A stretch of DNA of 64,000 nucleotides. It comes from Tridacna crocea (lineage: Eukaryota > Mollusca > Bivalvia > Cardiida > Cardiidae). This document shows, in pieces, positions 6,857 through 62,788 of the stretch. The notes beneath the pieces were generated by a model. That model was given only the letters and a program-made list of their open reading frames with translations. It was not told where the DNA came from and made no database searches. The first letter of the stretch is position 1, and the number at the start of each line of letters is the position of its first letter. Position numbers and translations under genes: made by a program. The stretch spans positions 16,129,290 through 16,193,289 of the forward strand of contig OX031061.1 of assembly GCA_943736015.1 (NCBI GenBank), written 5' to 3'.

Positions 6857-7046
6857 CTCTTTACTACAATATTTCAAATTCTAATTATGATCTTGAAGTA
6901 GAACTTAGCTTTCGAAAACCTAGGAAAGGGAGAAATACTGGTAATCAGTATTTTCTCCTTTTCCTACAATGTTTTCTAGGAATCAAAGGAAAATGTCATC
7001 AACTTAGCCACATTTAATTTGTCAGCTGCACAGTGCATTCATTTAA
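6853..7046 (-). mobile_element. Degraded type-1 PC-MITE with altered core
   Basis: The core reads AGAAATACTGGTAATCAGTATTTTC. ATGC has become ATAC in one arm and GCAT has become GTAT in the other, so pairing is retained. It sits between two TTAA sites shared with its neighbours. Confidence 0.65.
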
Positions 7047-7388
7047 CTCATTACCAAATGACAAAATTTTAGACTTGTCCAAATCGGAAGTATTTGCAGA
7101 CAACAGAATAAAAGTGACTGAAAATTTGAAATTTGTTATGTGAAGGGTAGAGAACATTGTGGGAAAAGGAGAGAATGCTGGTTACCAGCATTTTCTCCTT
7201 TTCCCACAATGTTTTCTAAAGGCATCTTTCTCAGGGTTGTCAAAAGTAGGGATTGTGGGAAAAGGAGAAAATGCTGGTTACCAGCATTTTCTCCTTTTCC
7301 CACAATGTTTTCTCCTTTTCCCACAATGTTTTCTAAAGGCGTCTTTCTCAGGGTCGTCAAAAGTAGGGATTGTGTGGTAATGGGTTAA
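7043..7388 (+). mobile_element. Type-1 PC-MITE with internally duplicated core
   Basis: The left half and first palindrome (about 7146-7220) are followed by GGGATTGTG running directly into GGAAAAGGAG of a second palindrome (about 7253-7315). A further partial copy of CCTTTTCCCACAATGTTTTC follows before the normal right end. The joint falls in ATTGTG, which the terminus and the arm share. Confidence 0.85.
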
Positions 7389-12188: not shown

Positions 12189-14165
12189 CTGGCAGGAAAT
12201 CTAAAAATATCTGAAGAGGCTACATAGCCTTTTAAGGGAATATCGTCAAATTTTTTTTGTAATTTTTTGATTCTCAATTGGTGATGGATGATTTGTATTG
12301 TTTTTTGCTCTCCTGAGCATGAAGTGCTCAGAGTGAGCTATTGTGATAGTGCTGTGTCCGGCATGGGATGTGTGTCGACAACTTTTACCTTGTGTATGCT
12401 CTAGAGGCCACATTTTTTGTCTGATACTCATGAAACTTAGTCAGAATGTTTGCCTTGATGAAATCCCAGACAAGTTTGAAATTGGGTTATGTCGGGTCAA
12501 AAACTAGGTCACTAGGTCAAATTTTAGAAACGCCTTGTGTACGCTCTAGAGGCCACATTTTCAGTCCGATACTCATGAAAGTTTGTCAGAATGTTTGCTT
12601 TAATAAAATGTCGGAGGATTTTGAAAATGGGTCATGTCGGGTCATAAACTAGGTCACTAGGTCAAATCTTAGAAAAACCTTGTGAACGCTGTAGAGGCCA
12701 CTTTTTTAGTCTGATATCATGAAAGTTCATCAGAATGTTTGCCTCGATGATACCTTGGACTACTCTGAAAATGGGTCATATGGGTTCAAAAACTAGGTCA
12801 CTAGATCAATTCTTAGAAAAACCATGTGTAAGCTCTAGAGGCCACATTTTCAGCCTGATACTCATGAAACTTGGTCAAAATGTTTGCCTCGATGATATCT
12901 CGGATGAGATTATAAAATGGGTCATGTCAGGTCAAAAGCTAGGTCACTATGTCAAATCTTAGAAAAACCTTATGTACGCTCTAGAGGCTACATTTTCATT
13001 CCGATACACATGAAAGTTTGTTAAAAGATTTGCCTCAATGATATCTTGAATGAGTTTGAAAATGGGTCATGCCAGGTTAACAACTAGGCCACTGGGTCAA
13101 ATCTTTGAAAAAATTTACATACGCTCTAGAGGCCACATTTTCAGTCCGATACTCATGCAAGTTGGTCAGAATGTTTGCCTCAATGATATCTCAGATGAGT
13201 TCGAAAATGAGTCATGTCAGGTAAAAAACTAGGTCAAATCTTAGAAAAACCCTGTGTACGCTCTAGAGGCCATATTTTCAGTCTAAAACTCTTGAAAGTT
13301 GGTCAAAATGTTTGTCTTGATGATATCTTTCATGAGTTTCAAATTGGGTGATGTCTGGTCAAAAACTAGGTCACCAGGTCAAGTGTTAGAAAAACCTTTT
13401 GTACGCTCTAGAGGCCACATTTGCAGTCCAAAACTCTTGTAAGTTGGTCAGAATGTTTGTCTTGATGATATCTCTGACGAATTTGAAAATGGGTCATGTT
13501 GGGTCAGAAACTAGGTTACCAGGTCAAATATTAGAAAAACCTTCTATACGCTCTAGATGCTACATTTTCATTTCAACACTTGAAAATTGGTCAGAATGTT
13601 TGCCTTGATAATATCTTGGATGAGATTGAAAATGGATCATGTTCGGTCAAAAACTAGGTCAATAGGTCAAATATTGTAAAAACCTTGTGTATGCTCTGGA
13701 GGGCACATTTTCTGTCTGATACTCCTGAAACTTGTTCATAATGTTTGTCTTGGTGATACCTTGAATGAGTTTGAAAATGGGTCATTTGGAGTAAAAAACT
13801 AGGTTACTGGGTCAAATATTAGAAAAACCTTGTGTACACTCTAGAGGCCACATTTTCTGCCTGATACTCTTCAGACTTGGTCAGAATGTTTGTTTTGGTG
13901 ATGTCTCAAAAGTGTTTGATAATGGGTAATTGTCAGGTCCAAAACTAGGTCACTTGGTCAAATCTTAGAAAAAACTTTTGTATGCTGCAGAGGCCACATT
14001 TTCAGTCCAATACTCATGAAACTTGGTCAGAATGTTTGTCTTGCTGATATCTCAAAAGTGTTTTATAATGGGTAATGTGTGATAAAAAACTAGGTCACTG
14101 GGAAACTAGATTGAAAATGGTTCATGTTTGGTGAATAGACTCAAAATCTAAATACCCACCTTTAA
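12189..14165. mobile_element. Family E MITE split by a 145-bp-tandem element
   Basis: 12189-12303 (GGCAGGAAATC...TACATAGCCTTTTAAGGGAA...GATTTGTATTGTTTTTT) matches the interior of the copy at 35398. 14141-14165 (ATCTAAATACCCACCTTTAA) supplies its right terminus. The two parts are separated by the tandem element. The left terminus is not visible. Confidence 0.65.
12304..14140 (+). mobile_element. 145-bp-tandem element (family H), 12 units
   Basis: The head reads CTCTCCTGAGCATGAAGTGC, TCAGAGTGAGC and TGTGATAGTGCTGTGTCCGG. About twelve head-to-tail units follow; the CTCTAGAGGCCAC landmark recurs at 12401, 12546, 12691, 12835, 12981, 13126, 13263, 13408, 13553, 13696, 13841 and 13987, mostly 145 bp apart. 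Each unit includes CTCATGAAACTTGGTCAGAA, TTGATGATATCT and AACTAGGTCACTAGGTCAAA. It is non-coding. Short ORFs across it are by-products of the repeat. Confidence 0.85.
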
Positions 14166-17080: not shown

Positions 17081-18231
17081 CTAATTTTGTTTCTGTGAAA
17101 AAGTAAAAATCATTTTGGGAAAGAGAGAAAATGCTGGTTACCTCAATTTTCTCCTTTTCCCAACAATGCTTTCAGAAAGCTTCTTCCTCAAGGTTGTTAA
17201 AACCAGGGATTGTTTTTATACGCCCGTCGAAGACGGGATGTATTATGGGATCACCTGTGGCGGGCAGGCGGGCGGGTGGGTGGGTGGGCGGCTTCCAGTT
17301 CTTTGTCCGGAGCTTGCTTAATTTTTGAGTTATTGCCCTTTGTTGTTTTTCATACTTGAATTTTGTCCGGAGCATATCTCCAAAACTATGCTAGCTAGGG
17401 TTATGAAATTTCATGGGTGGATAGATCTCATTGAGGGGGAGTGCAGTGCACAGGAATCATAACTCTTGCTCGGTTAATTTTTGAGTTATTGCCCTTTGTT
17501 GTTTTTCATACTTAAATTTTGTCCGGTGTATATCTCCAAAACTATACTAGCTACGGTTATGAAATTTTTATGGGTGGATAGATCTCATCAAGGGAGAGTG
17601 CAGTGCACAAGAATCATAACTCTTGCTCGCTTAATTTTTGAGTTCTTACCCATTGTTGTTTTTCATACTTGAATTTTGTCCGGAGCATATCTTCAGAACT
17701 ATAGTAGCTACGGTTATGAAATTTCATGGGTGGATAGATCTCACTGAGGTGGAGTGCAGTGCACAAGAATCCTAACTCTTGCTTCCTTAATTTTTGAATT
17801 ATTGCCCTTTGTCATTTTTTATACTTGAATTTTGTCTGGTGACTATCTCCAAAACTATACCAGCTAGGGTTATGAAATTTCATGGGTGGATAGATCTCAC
17901 CGAGGGGGAGTGCATTGCACAGGAATCATAACTCTTCCTTGCTTAATTTTTGAGTTATTGCCTTTTGTCGTTTTTCATACTTGATTTTTGTCCGAAGCAT
18001 ATCTCCAAAACTATACTAGCTACGATTATGAAATTTCATGGGTGGATAGATCTCATCGATGTTGAGTGCAGTGCACAGGAATCACAACTCTTTCTTGCTT
18101 AATTTTTGAGTTATTGCCCTTTGTTGTTTTTCATACTTGAATTTTGTCCGATGCATGCCCCAGCTTTACAACTTGGGGTAAGACGGGCGTATCTTGCGAC
18201 AATTTGCTGCTCTTGTTTGGTAAAGGGTTAA
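17081..18231 (+). mobile_element. Type-1 PC-MITE split by the 156-bp-tandem element
   Basis: 17081-17216 carries the palindrome and right sub-terminal part as far as ACCAGGGATTGTTT. The terminus GTTTGGTAAAGGGTTAA resumes at about 18215. GTTT on both sides may be part of a target duplication. Confidence 0.7.
17217..18214 (+). mobile_element. 156-bp-tandem element with ACGCCCGTC ends
   Basis: The ends TATACGCCCGTCGAAGACGGG and GTAAGACGGGCGTAT are inverted. Between them are about five units marked by GAGTGCAGTGCACA at 17438, 17595, 17751, 17907 and 18063 (period ~156 bp). Each has TGAGTTATTGCCCTTTGTTG, AACTATACTAGCTACGG and CATGGGTGGATAGATCTCA. It is non-coding. Confidence 0.85.
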
Positions 18232-18771: not shown

Positions 18772-18985
18772 AACCCTTTTACTGTACAATCCTATCTCAG
18801 GAAAAAGCCTTTTGAAAATATTGTGGAAAAAGGAGAAAATGCTGGTAACCAGCATTTTCTCCTTTTTCCACAATGTTTTCTACTCTTTCAAATTCAGATT
18901 TCAACTTTTTAGTCACATTTATTTTGTCCCCTGCAAATGTTTCCAATTTTAACAGGTCTAAAATTTAGTCGTTTAGTAAAGAGTT
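18772..18985 (-). mobile_element. Type-1 PC-MITE with compensated arms
   Basis: The core reads ATTGTGGAAAAAGGAG... and ...CTCCTTTTTCCACAAT. The usual GTGGGAAAA / TTTTCCCAC pair has changed on both arms, so the stem is still perfect. The termini are eroded. Confidence 0.85.
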
Positions 18986-22379: not shown

Positions 22380-22580
22380 TTATCCCTTTACTCCATTGAT
22401 ACTTATTTCTACGCATTGCTTGTAGGAAATGGAAAACATTGTGGCAAAATGTGAAATTGCTTGTGACAAGCAATTTCATCTTTTGTCACAATGTTTTCTA
22501 TGCTATCAAAAGGGGTAATATACACCTTAGAAATGGCTTCATCCTTGCTGTTATTAGAGATACCATAAAAATGCCTTAGA
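22380..22580 (+). mobile_element. Type-2 PC-MITE
   Basis: Starts TATCCCTTTACTCCATTG. The core loop arms GCTTGT / ACAAGC differ from GCTCGT / ACGAGC in a paired way. The right end is lost at ATGCCTTAG. Confidence 0.75.
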
Positions 22581-24334: not shown

Positions 24335-24564
24335 CTCTTTACCACACAAGAAAATTTTAGACTGGTCCAAATTGAAAGCATTTGCAGACGACAAAATAAA
24401 AGTGACTAAAAAGTAGAAATTTGTTCTGGGAAGGGCAGAAAATACTGTGGGAAAAGGAGAAAATGCTGGTTAGCAGCATTTTCTCCTTTTCCCATAGTAT
24501 TTTCAAAAGGCTTCTTTCATAGGGGCGTCAAAAGTAGGGATTGTGTGGTGTGGTAATGGGTTAA
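24331..24564 (+). mobile_element. Type-1 PC-MITE
   Basis: TTAA at both ends. The loop is GGTTAGC, so the last pair is broken. A GTGTG slippage (GTGTGGTGTGGTAATGGG) lies at the right end. Confidence 0.88.
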
Positions 24565-27563: not shown

Positions 27564-27790
27564 TTAATTCTTTGCCAAACAACAAAATTTTAGATTGGTC
27601 CAAATTGAAAACAGTTGCAGACGAAAAAATAAAAGTGACTGAAAATTTGAAATTTCATTTGGGAAAGGAAGAAAAGATTGTGGGAAGAGGAGAAAATGCT
27701 GGTAACCAGCATTTTCTCCTTTTCCTACAATGTTTTCAGAAGGCTTCTTTTTTAAGGTTGTTAAAAGTCTGGATTGTGCTGTAATAATAA
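27564..27790 (+). mobile_element. Type-1 PC-MITE with inverted core polarity
   Basis: The sub-terminal order is plus, but the central base reads GGTAACC, the state usual in minus copies. The right end is eroded (GTGCTGTAATAATAAAG). Confidence 0.85.
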
Positions 27791-28263: not shown

Positions 28264-28494
28264 TACTCTTTACCAAACAGCAGGAGTTTGGACTGGTCCA
28301 AATTGAAAGCAATGGCAGACGACAACATTAACATGACTCAAAAATTGAAATTTGTTTTTGGATGGGTAGAAAACATTGCGGGAAAAGGTGAAAATACTGG
28401 TTACCAGTATTTTCTCCTTTTCCCACAATGTTCTCAAAAGGCTCCTGTCCCAGGGTCGTAAAAACCAGGGGTTGATTGCATGATAAAGAGTTAA
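28264..28494 (+). mobile_element. Type-1 PC-MITE with compensated core
   Basis: The core reads GAAAATACTGGTTACCAGTATTTTC. ATGC has become ATAC while GCAT has become GTAT, so the stem stays perfect here. The left TTAA is lost and the right TTAA is kept. Confidence 0.88.
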
Positions 28495-32133: not shown

Positions 32134-33974
32134 TTAACTCTTTACCACACAGAGAAAATTTTAAACTGGTCCAAATAGAAAGCATTTGCAGACGACAAAA
32201 TAAAGATGACTGAAAATTTGAAATTAGGTCTGGGAAGGGTAGAAAATACTGTGGGAAAAGGAGAAAATGCTGGTTACCAGCATTTTCTCCTTTTCCCACA
32301 GTGTTTTTAGCTCACCTGAGCACAACGTGCTCAAGGGGAGCTTTTAGGATCACCCGGTGTCCGTCGTCCGTCGTCCGTCGTGCGTCAGTGCGTCGTGCGT
32401 CGTGCGTCGTCAACAATTCTTTAAACATCAACTCCTCCTAAACCGCTGGGCGGATTTGGACCAAACTTGGCTGGAATGTTCCTTGGGAGGTCCTCTTTAA
32501 AAATTGTTCACAGAATTTGATTCCGTCAAAAACTCTGGTTGCCATGGCAAGGAAATGGAATTTTTTAGCAAATTCTTTAAAAATCTTCTTCTCTGAAACC
32601 GCTGGCCAGATTTTAAAATAATTTCACACAGATGTTCCTTGGGTGACCCTTTTCAAAAATTGTTCGCGAAATTTTGATCTGTCAAGAAACATGGCTCTGG
32701 TGAATGGGGGCTTCTTGCACTATACAGAAATGATGAAATTCTTAAAAATTCTTCTTCTCTGAAACCGCTGGCCAGATTTTAAAATAATTTCACACAGATG
32801 TTCCTTAGGTGACCCTTTTCAAAAATTGTTCGTGAAATTTTGATCCGTCAAGAAACATGGCTCTGGTGAATGGGGGCTTCTTGCACTGTACAGAAATGAA
32901 GAAATTCTTAAAAATTCTTCTTCTCTGTAACCGCAGGTCAGATTTTAAAATAATTTCACAGAGATGTTCCTTGGATGACCCTTTTCATAAATTGTTCGCG
33001 AAATTTTGATCTGTCAAGAAACATGGCTCTGGTGAATGGGGGCTTCTTGCACTATACAGAAATGAAGAAATTCTTAAAAATTCTTCTTCTCAGAAACCGC
33101 TGGTTAGATTTTGAAATAATTTCACAGACTTGTTCCTTGGGTTACCCTTTTCAAAAACTGTTCGCGAAATTTTGATTGGTCAAGAAACATGGCTCTGGTG
33201 AATGGGGGCTACTTGCACTATATAGAAATGAAGAAATTCTTGAAAATTCTTCTTCTCTGAAATGGCTGGACAGATTTTGAAATAATTTCACAGAGATGTT
33301 CCTTGGGTGATCCTTTTCTAAAATTGTTCGCAAAATTTTGATTGGCCAAGAAACATGGCTCTAGTGAATGGGGGCTACTTGCACTATATGGAAATGAAGA
33401 AATTCTTGAAAATTCTTCTTCTCTGAAACCTGTGGTCAGATTTTAAAATAATTTGACAGAGATGTTCCTTGTGGGACCCTTTCCAAAAGCTGTACATATA
33501 ATTTTGATCCATCAAGAAACATGGTCTTGTGAATGGGGGCTACTTGCACTATATGGACATGATGAAATTCTTTAAAATTCTCTTTCTCTGAAACCCCTGG
33601 TCAGATTTTGAAATTATTTCAGAGAGATGTTCCTTGGGTGACCCTTTTCAAAACTTGTTTGTAAATTTTGATCCATCAAGAAACATGGCTCTCATGGATG
33701 GGGCCTACTTGCTCTTATACAGAAATGAAGAATTCTTAAAAATTCTTCTTTTTGAAACTGATGGTCAGATTTCGAAATGATTTTTACAGGTGACCTTTTG
33801 AAAATTGCTTGGCAAAATTATAAATTTGGTTCCAATGTTTCAATACCTAAAAAAAAAAATAGACTATGGTCATCTCAAAAATTCAGGTGAGCGATCCAGG
33901 GCCATCTTGGCCCTCTTGTTAAAAGGCTTCTTTCTCAGGGGTGTCAAAAGTAGGGATTGTGTGGTAATGGGTAA
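32134..33974 (+). mobile_element. Type-1 PC-MITE in intron 1, split by the 166-bp-tandem element
   Basis: 32134-32307 holds the left end and the whole palindrome to CACAGTGTTTT. 33920-33974 resumes with AAAAGGCTTCTTTCTCAGGG and GGTAATGGGTA. Confidence 0.8.
32308..33919 (+). mobile_element. 166-bp-tandem element (family H), eight units
   Basis: The head is AGCTCACCTGAGCACAACGT, GCTCAAGGGGAGC, then repeated TCCGTCGTCCGTCGTGCGTC. The CTCTGAAACCGCTGG landmark recurs at 32595, 32761, 32927, 33093, 33259, 33425, 33590 and 33754 (period 166). The tail is AGGTGAGCGATCCAGGGCC then CCCTCTTGTT. The first 12 bp (AGCTCACCTGAG) are roughly inverted in the tail (CAGGTGAGC). It is non-coding. Confidence 0.88.
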
Positions 33975-34726: not shown

Positions 34727-34956
34727 TTAACCCTTTACCACACATTGCCGACTTTTAATGACCCCCGAAAAAGATGCCTTTTGAAAATATTGTGGGAAAA
34801 GGAGAAATTGCTGGTAACCAGCAATTTCTCCTTTTCCCACAATGTTTTCAAAAGCCTTCTTTTTCATGGCCAGCATTTTCTCCTTTTCCCAAATGTTTTC
34901 AAAAGTCTTCTTTTTCATGGCTTTTAAAACCAGGGGATGTTTGGGAAAAGAATAAA
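34727..34956. mobile_element. PC-MITE right-right isomer
   Basis: Both flanks are of the right-half type. On the left are CACATTGCCGACTTTTAATG and ACCCCCGAAAAAGATGCC. After the palindrome come CAAAAGCCTTCTTTTTCATGG, a second partial arm, and GGCTTTTAAAACCAGGGGAT. The first core has paired changes (GAAATTGCTGG / CCAGCAATTTC). Confidence 0.8.
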
Positions 34957-37880: not shown

Positions 37881-38292
37881 CAGAGCTCCGGATAAGAGGG
37901 AGTGATGGTATTCTAATTCCATTAATTTTCTTTTAACCCTTTCCAGAACGACAAAGTTTGGACTCTTCCAAACTCATAGAGGTTGCAGACGACAATTTTA
38001 GATTATTAAAAAATGGCAGAAAGTTCTCAAAAAGGGTAGAAAACACTGTGGGAAAAGGAGAAATTGCTCGTTACGAGCAATTTCTCCTTTTCCCACAGTG
38101 TTTTCAAAAGACTTACTGCAGACACGTAAAAACCAGGGCTTGATTGGGAAAGGGTTAAACCCTATATTGTGGGTACTCATTTGAATCATCTTGATGAGAC
38201 GATTCTAATGAGTACCCACAACATAGGGTTTAAAGCAGAATTATTAGGAATTCAATTTTGAAATCAAAATCACTCCCTCTATCTGGAGCTCT
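37881..38292. mobile_element. 'Agagctcc' palindromic MITE (family D), interrupted
   Basis: Ends CAGAGCTCCGGATAAGAGGG and CTCCCTCTATCTGGAGCTCTG. A central palindrome (GTGGGTACTCATTTGAATC / GATTCTAATGAGTACCCAC) lies at about 38168-38222. A type-3 PC-MITE sits inside the left half. Confidence 0.8.
37933..38158 (+). mobile_element. Type-3 PC-MITE nested in family D
   Basis: TTAA at both ends. The core GGAGAAATTGCTCGTTACGA plus GCAATTTCTCC is perfect. It is the youngest of three nested insertions here. Confidence 0.88.
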
Positions 38293-42077: not shown

Positions 42078-42306
42078 TTAACCCTTTACTCCATAAGGCA
42101 TTTCTGTGGTATCTCTAAATGACCCTAAATAACAGCAAGGATGAAGCCGTTTCTTATGTGTATATGACACCTTTTGATAGCATAGAAAACATTGTGACAA
42201 AAGGTGAAATTGCTCGTTACGAGCAATTTCGCCTTTTGTCACAATGTTTTCCAAAGGCTCCTACAAGCAATGCATCAGAATGAGTATCTATGGAGTAAAG
42301 GGTTAA
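42078..42306 (-). mobile_element. Type-2 PC-MITE with compensated arms
   Basis: TTAA at both ends. The core is GTGACAAAAGGTGAAATTGC...GCAATTTCGCCTTTTGTCAC. The usual GTGGC/GCCAC pair is GTGAC/GTCAC here. It starts 50 bp after exon 5. Confidence 0.9.
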
Positions 42307-43458: not shown

Positions 43459-43687
43459 TTAACTCTTTACCACATGAGAAAATTTTAGACTGGTCCAAAT
43501 TGAAAGCATTTGCAGACGACAAAATAAAGGTGACTAAACAATAGAAAATTGTTCTGGGAAGGGTAGAAAACACTCTGGGAAAAGGAGAAAATGCTGGTTA
43601 CCAGCATTTTCTCCTTTTCCCATAGTGTTTTCAAAAGGCTTCTTTCTCAGGGGCGTCAAAAGTAGGGATTGTGTGGTAATGGGTTAA
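43459..43687 (+). mobile_element. Type-1 PC-MITE
   Basis: TTAA at both ends. Core perfect apart from CACTCTGGG / CCCATAGTG at the outer end. Confidence 0.9.
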
Positions 43688-45596: not shown

Positions 45597-46999
45597 AGGT
45601 CAAAGTCACAGCGGTGGGTGGGAGGTGTGGTGTAAGCAGAAAGTCACAGCAGTTAATGGGAGGGGTGATGGAAGCACAAAGTCAAAGCAGTATGTGGGAG
45701 GGATGTTGGGAGCAGAAAGTGACAGAGGTGGGTGGGAGGGATGGTGGAAGCAGAAAGTGACAGAGGTGGGTGGGAGGGATGGTGGAAGCAGGAAGTCACA
45801 GCAGTGGATGGGAGGGTTGGTGGTAGCAGAAAGTGACAGCGGTCAGTGGGAGGGATGGTGAAAGCAGGAAGTCACAGCAGTGGATGGGAGGATTGGTGGT
45901 AGCAGAAAGTCACAGCGGTCAGTGGGAGGGATGGTGGAAGCAGGAAGTCACAGCAGTGGGTGGGAGGGATAGTGGAAGCAGGAAGTCACAGCCGTTGGTT
46001 GGAGGGATGGTGGAAACTGGAAGTCAGAGCAGTGGGTGCGAGGGATGGTGGAAGCAGGAAATCACAGCAGTGGGTGGGAGGGATAGTGGAAGCAGGAAGT
46101 CACAGCAGTGGGTGCGAGGGATGGTGGAAACAGGAAGTCACGGTGGTGGGTGTGAGGGATGGTGGAAACAGGAAGTTAGGTGGTGGGTGTGAGGGATGGT
46201 GGAAGCGGGAAGTCACAGCAGTGGGTGGGAGGGATGGTGGAAGCGGGAAGTCACAGTGGTGGGTGCGAGGGATGGTGGAAGCGGGAAATCACAGCAGTGG
46301 ATGCGAGGGATGGTGGAAACAGGAAGTCACAGCAGTGGGTGCGAGGGATGAAGGAAACAGGAAGTCACGTTGGTGGGTGTGAGGGATGGTGGAAGCGGGA
46401 AGTCACAGCAGCAGGTGGGAGGGATAGTGGAAGCAGGAAGTCACAGTGGTCGGTGGGACAGATGGTGGAAGCAGGAAGTCACAGCAGTGGGTGCGAGGGA
46501 TGGTGGAAACAGGAGGTCACAGTGGTGGGTGGGACAGATGGTGGAAACAGGAAGTTACAGTGGTGGGTCGGACAGATGGTGGAAGCAGGAAGTCACAGTG
46601 GTGGGTGGGACAGATGGTGGAAACAGGAAGTCACAGTGGTGGGTGGGACAGATGGTGGAAGCAGGAAGTCACGGCAGTGGGTGGGAGGGATGGTGGAAGC
46701 AGGAAGTCACGGTGGTGGATGGGACAGATGGTGGAAGCAGGAAGTCACAGCAGTGGGTGGGACAGATGGTGGAAGCAGGAAGTCACAGTCGTGGGTGGGA
46801 TGGATGGTGGTAGCAGGAAGTCATTTTGGTGGGAGGTAGTAATGGTGGAAGCAGAAAATATCAGCATTGAGTGGGAGGAGTGGTGGAATCAGAAAGTTAC
46901 AGTGGTGGATGGGAGGGGTGGTGGAAGCAGAAAGTCACAGCAGTGGGTGTGAGGGATGGTGGAAGCAGAAAGTTACAGCAGTGGTGGGAGGGGTGGTGG
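45597..46999. repeat. 38-bp G-rich minisatellite in intron 7, ~37 copies
   Basis: The unit is GTGGGTGGGAGGGATGGTGG, AAGCAGGAAGTCACAGCA, with variants (CAGATGG for GGGATGG; GTGCGAGG; AAACAGG). GATGGTGGAA recurs at exact 38-bp spacing, e.g. 46461, 46499, 46537. Because 38 is not a multiple of three, long frames stay open in all three registers of the + strand. These are repeat artefacts, not genes. Each unit has three or more G-tracts. Confidence 0.92.
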
Positions 47000-47056
47000 A
47001 ATAGAGCAAGCACTTGTCTTGAGTAAACATGTTTTGAGTGTCCCTTTGTTGTTGAC

Positions 47057-50040: not shown

Positions 50041-50266
50041 AAACCTTTACCAAACAATAAAATTTTGGACTTGTCCAAATTTAAAGCATTTGCAGACAAC
50101 AAAATAAATGTGAATCAAAATTGAATTTTGACTTTGGAAAGGTGGAAAACATTGTGGGAAAAGGAGAAAATACTGGTTACCAGCATTTTCTCCTTTTCCC
50201 ACAATGTTTTCAAAAGGCTTCTTTCACAGGGGTGTTTAAAGTTAGGGATAATGTGGTAAAGGGTTA
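50041..50266 (+). mobile_element. Type-1 PC-MITE
   Basis: Left TTAA lost (AAACCTTTACCAAACAAT), right TTAA kept. Core GGAGAAAATACTGG / CCAGCATTTTCTCC has an unpaired change, an intermediate towards the compensated state at 28264. Confidence 0.85.
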
Positions 50267-61722: not shown

Positions 61723-62428
61723 GTAGGCTTACCTTTTACCAAAAGATCCCTTGTTCTACCTCTGTACCACACAATGTGGACTTTTGATGACCTTGGAGAA
61801 AGATGTCTTTGAAAACATTGTGGGAAAAGGAGACAACGCTGCTTAAGGCCCAGTCACACAGCGAAAACGCATGAATTACGCACGAATTACGCACAGATTT
61901 TCTTTTCTGCGCAGTGCGTGCGTCGTATGCGTAATTCGTTGGTGGAACTAACGTTGACAGTCTGTGATTGTAAGTGGATGTGCGTCGAAGGCGGTTTGTG
62001 CGTGATTTTGAGTTTTGAACGGTTCAAAATTTTTCCGACGCGTTGGTGTGCGTAATTCATGATTCGGTGTGCGTAGTTAATGCGTCGAGTATGCGTGACT
62101 ATGTGTGGGTCACGCGTCGGCCGTCAGTGCTTATGTGTCGGAACTGGTTTGAAACCGCGCACGTCCATGTCCGTCCACTGACGCCCCACGTTCATATCAC
62201 GCATGAACCGCGCATGTATCACGTTCATTCCACTGACATCCACTGACAATCACTTAAAAAACTGACAAATAACTGACATATCACTGACGGAAAACGCATT
62301 ACAACGTACATCCACTGACGTGTGACGCATTTCCAATGCATTGCCACACACATCCGACAGACGACTAACTGACAGAAAACTGATGAATCACTGACGAATC
62401 ACTGACAACTCGCGTATGATTTTTGGCA

Positions 62429-62436
62429 TATAAAAG
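62429..62436 (+). promoter_or_regulatory. TATA-box-like site of the Harbinger element
   Basis: CATATAAAAG lies about 65 bp before the ATG of the transposase-like ORF, a spacing typical of a short 5' UTR promoter. Confidence 0.5.
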
Positions 62437-62494
62437 CAGCCATTTCGGGCACTTTTGCCATTCCAGGCCTTGCTGCCAAAGGGTCCATATCACT

Positions 62495-62788
62495 ATGAAC
62501 CCTCAAAGAAGAGATGTTATGGTGTTCCTGCTGCAGCACCAGAATGCCCAGATGGTGCAACTTCATCAGATGTTGGCCAGGAGAAGAAGACGCAGGAGAA
62601 GACAACAGATCCGGGCTGTCCGGACCAGAAACTGGATCACTAGAAGACCACAGCAGGGCTTGTATGACCGTCTGATAGTGAAGCTCAGAAATGAAGACCC
62701 AAGATCCTTCCAGAACTTCATGAGAATGCCTCCAGACATGTTTCAAGTAGTCTTCAAGGTCTCAGGATCACAGCATCAACCGATGTGA
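62495..62788 (+). pseudogene. Truncated Harbinger transposase-like ORF (97 codons)
   Basis: It starts MNPQRRDVMVFLLQHQNAQM. It has an eight-arginine tract (RRRRRRRR), then RNWITRRPQQGLYDRLIVKL, RNEDPRSFQNFMRMPPDMF. The sequence 'xxWxxRRxxxGxYxxLxxELRxEDxxxFxNFxRMxPxxF' is the usual N-terminal region of animal Harbinger nucleases ahead of the DDE domain. The catalytic domain is absent: the frame ends shortly after QVVFKVSG. There may be a cryptic splice donor at TTCAAG|GTCTCA, so this could be a retained first exon. Host function is not indicated. Confidence 0.7.

What the first reader, a model, noticed from the sequence alone, without database searches (positions are those of the whole stretch)
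28377..28440. Palindrome arms of the dominant MITE change in pairs between copies
The 32-bp arms remain complementary although their sequence differs among copies. Examples: ATGC/GCAT became ATAC/GTAT at 28377; GTGGGAAAA/TTTTCCCAC became GTGGAAAAA/TTTTTCCAC at 18820-18880; GTGGC/GCCAC became GTGAC/GTCAC at 42195; GCTCGT/ACGAGC became GCTTGT/ACAAGC at 22455; GAAAATGC became GAAATTGC on both arms at 34805. Point mutation alone should break pairing. Either hairpin-templated repair (quasipalindrome correction during replication) homogenises arms, or the folded form is selected, for example as a hairpin RNA or transposition intermediate. The 50160 copy shows an unpaired intermediate (ATAC with GCAT).
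Basis: partly seen in the sequence, partly recalled or inferred. Interest (0 to 1): 0.78.

Follow-up and report, generated by a model that had tools for sequence, protein, structure and literature searches.

The report
Hairpin arms sometimes copy each other
A very abundant short mobile element in this animal-like DNA carries a 67-letter mirror-image hairpin whose two arms sometimes change together; most of that is inherited from founder copies, but a small excess fits a known copying error in which one arm serves as the template for the other.

Summary
The quoted paired changes are real, but "the arms remain complementary" is overstated. The element is a ~230-bp TTAA-flanked, piggyBac-like MITE with a 67-bp internal palindrome (33-bp arms, one centre base). 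Of 82 hairpins analysed, 4 are perfect and the median has 3 mismatched pairs; single changes outnumber complementary doubles 293 to 27.

Two layers explain the doubles. (1) The common paired states (pairs 8, 14, 21, 26, 31) mostly mark flank clades, so they are largely founder-inherited. (2) Copy-specific doubles still exceed chance about twofold: 27 versus 12.1 in mis-registered same-base pairs (0 of 5000); 19 distinct kinds versus 10.35 (2 of 2000). Recurrent kinds sit on distant flanks. Wobble (G-U) and A-C intermediates are about equally common, so nothing points to RNA selection. A protein-database sample agrees weakly.

Best reading: arm-to-arm template copying in a DNA hairpin, a known mechanism, on top of founder inheritance, touching roughly 4% of mutated pairs. 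Unsampled subfamilies cannot be excluded: the genome could not be searched.

The parts
28265..28491 (+). MITE copy that holds the focal hairpin (model positions 3-225)
28369..28435 (+). Focal 67-bp hairpin: pair 28 G:C to A:T in both arms; pairs 3, 11 and 21 mismatched
   Evidence: folds as DNA (stretch shifted by 2)
18814..18880 (-). Hairpin with pair 14 G:C to A:T in both arms; pair 6 mismatched
42185..42251 (+). Subfamily C hairpin with pair 13 G:C to A:T in both arms; pair 21 mismatched
22432..22498 (-). Subfamily C hairpin with pair 31 C:G to T:A at a CpG in both arms; pairs 13, 19 and 20 mismatched; orientation rests on a weak flank match
34783..34849 (-). A-type hairpin with the B/C state (A:T to T:A) at pair 26
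50145..50211 (+). Hairpin changed in the left arm only at pair 28 (unpaired)
24438..24504 (+). A2 hairpin with a private paired change at pair 6 that its flank relative 43460 lacks (flank distance 0.052)
43566..43632 (+). Flank relative of the 24332 copy, without that paired change
38039..38105 (+). Subfamily B hairpin (pairs 8, 26 and 31 in other paired states)
27671..27737 (+). Hairpin whose centre base reads A instead of T

Best explanation
A ~230-bp TTAA-inserting, piggyBac-like MITE carries an internal 67-bp palindrome. Its paired arm changes have two sources. (1) Shown: the common paired states are mostly inherited by whole subfamilies from founder copies. (2) Inferred from a shown statistical excess: in single lineages a point mutation in one arm is now and then copied into the other when a strand folds back and one arm serves as template for repair or replication (quasipalindrome correction, template switching). 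In low-divergence A1/A2 copies the excess is about 7 of 173 changed pairs, roughly 4%; most mutations stay unpaired. How the founders of B and C acquired their paired states is not shown; the same copying, or selection for a symmetric palindrome in active copies, could have done it.
For: 27 doubles versus 12.4 under a null that keeps each copy's load and each site's changes (0 of 2000), 19 distinct kinds versus 10.35 (2 of 2000); 12.95 with GC-to-AT class also kept (0 of 2000); 12.1 for same-base pairs out of register in the same hairpins (0 of 5000); 21 versus 10.7 in A1 alone, whose consensus stem has no CpG (1 of 5000). Random complementary pairings of flank columns give a ratio of 1.19 (5-95%: 0.78-1.64) against 24/8.17 for the hairpin without pair 8. 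Carriers of the 6 recurrent kinds are 0.29-0.66 apart in flank sequence. Of 35 disjoint flank-nearest pairs, arms match their own partner better than the relative's in 15, worse in 2, equal in 18. Terminal-repeat doubles are instead 13 of 15 two shared states. G-U and A-C intermediates are about equal, 89:81. Large deletions cluster at the hairpin: 14 of 25 of 5 bp or more. The centre base reads A for T in 7 of 73 A1/A2 hairpins versus 2.2% for that change elsewhere.
Against: Doubles are few beside 293 singles. In the 13 most diverged copies the excess is weak (52 of 1000 nulls reach it). Doubles are not surrounded by cleaned-up stem: 34 nearby mismatched or changed pairs versus 36.6 expected, so copied tracts would have to be short. 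The centre T-to-A excess over T-to-C is only p 0.07 in the window, and in the protein sample T-to-A (20) and T-to-C (17 of 219) are similar. In the protein sample, subfamily B pair 31 shows 2 doubles against 2.2 expected. Copying at this rate is too rare to explain why arms diverge more slowly than flanks, 5.7% versus 9.5%. Private in the window need not be private in the genome.
Confidence: 0.5

Rival explanations
1. Founder inheritance only: every paired state, the apparently private ones included, arose rarely in an active source copy and spread by transposition; the window samples too few copies to show the sisters.
For: The common paired states mark clades. The terminal repeats, about 200 bp apart, also covary (15 versus 7.2), as two shared states. 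The protein hits suggest thousands of copies elsewhere, so many subfamilies are unsampled.
Against: 13 of 19 kinds of double have one carrier and the recurrent 6 sit on distant flanks; the excess appears in close flank relatives too; flank columns show little such excess.
Confidence: 0.27
2. DNA-level selection in active copies for a symmetric palindrome, for example as paired half-sites for a transposase dimer or as a fold used in transposition; paired changes track the needs of the transposase.
For: The palindrome is the most conserved inner part and diverges more slowly than flanks even in the 11 closest pairs. piggyBac ends carry palindromes bound by two cysteine-rich domains (PMC11707139, passages read). 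Four of the five founder changes are base swaps, which suits symmetry rather than RNA pairing.
Against: Inserted copies should be neutral, yet private doubles exceed chance; only 4 of 82 hairpins are perfect; 33-bp arms are long for a dimer site (known piggyBac palindromes: 19 bp).
Confidence: 0.15
3. RNA-level selection: transcribed stems act as small-RNA precursors and pairing is kept by compensatory change.
For: The stem folds strongly (DNA parameters); the palindromic MITE Made1 gave rise to miR-548 genes (PMC1784062, passages read).
Against: Wobble-keeping singles are not clearly commoner than A-C ones, 89 versus 81; no Rfam family reaches its gathering score in the window; founder changes are mostly base swaps without a wobble intermediate.
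Confidence: 0.05

Closest known systems
Template-switch homogenisation of short inverted-repeat arms, with spacer inversion, in S. cerevisiae genes (PMC8604942; passages read)
   Same: One arm takes the other's sequence; the spacer can flip; seen as lineage-specific events.
   Different: There multi-base changes in orthologous genes; here single pairs in dispersed MITE copies, with no orthologues and no tract signal.
Template switching maintaining stems of RNA genes (PMC8794818; abstract and one section read)
   Same: Compensatory changes explained by copying at the DNA level; most are isolated single pairs, uninformative about mechanism.
   Different: RNA genes are under selection for pairing; no RNA role is seen here.
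Concerted evolution of palindrome arms in Nematomorpha mitochondria (PMC6649704; passages read)
   Same: Paired substitutions in both arms; template switching proposed.
   Different: There most repeats over 30 bp are perfect; here 4 of 82 are.
Made1 MITE and miR-548 (PMC1784062; passages read)
   Same: Short non-coding element with ~35-bp palindrome arms able to fold as a hairpin.
   Different: In Made1 the arms are the terminal repeats; here the palindrome is internal and the ends lie at TTAA.
piggyBac transposon ends (PMC11707139; passages read)
   Same: TTAA target duplication; palindromic sites near the ends.
   Different: No transposase was looked for or found here beyond 2 ORFs without Pfam hits; the palindrome is 67 bp.

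Membership tests
piggyBac-type MITE | TTAA at both ends as the target duplication | tested here: met
   86-99% per letter at 81 left ends, 84-93% at 85 right ends; outside bases reach at most 49%
piggyBac-type MITE | Terminal inverted repeats next to TTAA | tested here: met
   Ends CYCTTTACCA and its reverse complement; likeness to piggyBac termini is recalled
piggyBac-type MITE | Moved by a piggyBac transposase | not tested
   No transposase search was made beyond Pfam on 2 window ORFs, no hit
Template-switch arm homogenisation | Paired changes in register above chance, beyond shared ancestry | tested here: met
   ancestry controlled within the window only
Template-switch arm homogenisation | Spacer inversion | tested here: inconclusive
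   Centre A in 7 of 73 (p 0.0016), 6 changes on a tree of 80 rows; not specific against T-to-C
Template-switch arm homogenisation | Tracts of several bases copied at once | tested here: not met
   34 changed pairs within 4 of a double versus 36.6 expected; so mechanism is argued by likeness, not filed as shown
Template-switch arm homogenisation | Event seen directly between parent and offspring sequences | not testable with these tools
   No orthologous insertions were available
Selected RNA hairpin (Made1/miR-548-like) | Wobble-keeping intermediates preferred | tested here: not met
   89 G-U versus 81 A-C singles
Selected RNA hairpin (Made1/miR-548-like) | Small RNAs from the stem | not testable with these tools
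   No expression data held; no Rfam match at gathering threshold in the window

The most novel reading that the evidence does not exclude
Dispersed copies of a palindromic MITE are many parallel natural records of arm-to-arm template copying in an animal germline: roughly 4% of mutated stem pairs are copied across, the centre base occasionally flips, and new palindromic subfamilies can arise by mutation alone, without selection for pairing.
Probability: 0.3. Interest if true: 0.6.

Novelty: new member of a known kind. Interest (0 to 1): 0.4.

Why it matters
Covariation is usually read as proof of a selected RNA structure. Here a stem in presumably neutral mobile-element copies covaries with no sign of RNA selection, so the element is a warning case for covariation tests and, with a whole genome in hand, a natural assay for how often one hairpin arm is copied onto the other in a germline.

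Tried and rejected
Rejected: RNA-level selection (no wobble bias, no Rfam match). Rejected as a full account: chance coincidence at mutable sites (margin, class-stratified and mis-register nulls). CpG decay fits the 22455 example and one more C-subfamily double (6415, pair 32), but the A1 consensus stem has no CpG and A1 alone still shows 21 versus 10.7. Long-tract copying: not seen. An early comparison of within-copy mismatch (0.1153) with flank-nearest relatives (0.1136) showed no difference; it is biased because nearest relatives tend to be little-diverged copies, so it was replaced by the balanced comparison, which does show one.

Led nowhere: viral contigs and genome contigs gave no relative; Pfam gave nothing for 2 window ORFs. 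Nine paper searches: 28, 47 and 48 returned nothing; others listed neighbouring work. I saw no listed paper on arm-to-arm copying inside a MITE, in an open-licence library only; that is not proof that none exists.

Limits of the protein sample: 120 listed of 1622, 7086 and 1450 hits (335 proteins after overlap), mostly close to consensus, from unnamed ENA sources, readable at 11 of 33 pairs; its out-of-register mean was not rescaled for pairs left in place, so it is somewhat too low.

Full report
What is there. The window is 37% GC and looks animal-like; the organism was not identified. A profile grown from one copy gives 133 non-redundant matches, 57 of them complete, and its hits cover 37.7% of the window. 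The model is 226 bp: 106 bp of left flank, a 67-bp perfect palindrome (two 33-bp arms around one T) and 53 bp of right flank. Ends lie at TTAA: 86-99% per letter at 81 left ends and 84-93% at 85 right ends, while bases outside reach at most 49%. 25 of 132 neighbouring matches abut within -6 to +4 bases, and by my count of that printout 18 of the 25 junctions hold a TTAA. This is the anatomy of a piggyBac-type MITE (superfamily traits partly recalled).

Checking the observation. Of 98 loci with at least 50 hairpin columns I analysed the 82 with at least 60 (16 dropped). By nearest palindrome they are A1 (61), A2 (12), B (3) and C (6). Arm mismatch is 11.5% within copies and 15.7% between copies.

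Founder layer. On a tree of 71 copies built from flanks alone, C is one clade (100/100), B is one clade (100/99) and A2 needs three changes. Pairs 8, 14, 21, 26 and 31 hold 33 of the 39 double-changed cells in the hand-picked set of 43 and are therefore largely inherited. Relative to A1, four of these five are base swaps (A:T/T:A, G:C/C:G), which have no wobble intermediate; which state is older is not known.

Private layer. Against each copy's subfamily, 27 complementary doubles remain. Keeping each copy's load and each site's changes, 12.4 doubles and 10.35 distinct kinds are expected, versus 27 and 19 (0 and 2 of 2000). Keeping GC-to-AT class as well, 12.95 (0 of 2000). Same-base pairs out of register in the same hairpins, 12.1 (0 of 5000); A1 alone, 21 versus 10.7 (1 of 5000). 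A1/A2 copies with at most 8 differences and without 34729: 11 versus 4.09 (2 of 5000), among 173 changed pairs, so an excess of about 4%. Random complementary pairings of flank columns give a ratio of 1.19 (0.78-1.64), the hairpin without pair 8 gives 24 to 8.17. Of 19 kinds, 13 have one carrier; carriers of the other six differ by 0.29-0.66 in flank sequence. The terminal repeats also covary, 15 versus 7.2, but 13 of those 15 are two shared states, which is what founder inheritance looks like. In 35 disjoint flank-nearest pairs, arms match their own partner better than the relative's in 15, worse in 2, equally in 18.

Against this reading: in the 13 most diverged copies the excess is weak (52 of 1000 nulls reach it), doubles are not surrounded by cleaned-up stem (34 versus 36.6), and a copy that is private in this window may have unsampled sisters.

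Other hints. The centre base is A instead of T in 7 of 73 A1/A2 hairpins, against 61 of 2753 for the same change at other T:A sites (p 0.0016), with 6 changes between A and T on a flank tree of 80 rows. Spacer inversion would do this, but the skew against T-to-C is only p 0.07, and in the protein sample T-to-A (20) and T-to-C (17 of 219) are similar. Of 25 deletions of 5 bp or more in 78 copies, 14 touch the hairpin; of the 16 of 9 bp or more, 12 do (counted by hand). Arms diverge more slowly than flanks even in the 11 closest pairs, 5.7% versus 9.5% (p 0.0016). Copying at the inferred rate is too rare to cause that, so constraint on source copies or lower mutability is also likely.

Beyond the window. 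Translations of the MITE match 1622, 7086 and 1450 proteins from unnamed ENA sources in three searches, 120 listed each time. In the frame read, 11 stem pairs join first codon positions. Among 218 distinct hairpins (one misaligned row dropped from 219), 7 complementary doubles lie in register against 1.1 out of register. Three of the 7 are at the CpG pair 31, where subfamily B shows 2 against 2.2 expected, and two are in one tandem protein, so this is weak support. In some searches only the first part of the query was scored, so the right arm was not selected for; the whole query was.

Conclusion. Founder inheritance explains the common paired states. A modest, well-controlled excess of private doubles fits arm-to-arm template copying, described in yeast genes and, by its introduction, in phages and many organisms (PMC8604942, passages), in RNA genes (PMC8794818, abstract and one section) and in great apes (PMC7954356, seen only in a listing). 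Selection on RNA is unsupported; selection on a symmetric DNA palindrome in active copies remains possible. The missing test is genome-wide.

Noticed in passing
window 45603-47001: 38-bp minisatellite, about 37 copies, 83% matching; it gives long open frames on the + strand.
   Followed up: no
window 12387-14099, 17312-18150, 32570-33783: Satellite-like tandem arrays with periods of about 145/291, 156 and 166 bp.
   Followed up: no
window 62423-62788 (+): 121-aa open frame that reminded me of Harbinger-type transposon proteins (recalled); Pfam finds nothing.
   Followed up: partly
window 7044-7386: One MITE with its hairpin repeated (7150-7216 and 7251-7312) and part of an arm repeated again; looks like a slippage or template-switch duplication at a shared ATTGTG.
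   Followed up: no
terminal repeats of A1/A2 copies: Both ends switch together: pair 7 T to A in 8 copies and pair 10 A to C in 5 copies, marking groups with matched ends.
   Followed up: partly
whole window: 25 of 132 neighbouring MITE matches abut, most sharing one TTAA, as if new copies inserted at the TTAA of old ones.
   Followed up: partly
whole window: More MITE matches on the + strand than on the - strand, 82 versus 51.
   Followed up: no
MITE arms versus flanks: Arms diverge more slowly than flanks even in the closest pairs, most of all at A:T sites (3.0% versus 8.0%); not explained by the inferred copying rate.
   Followed up: partly
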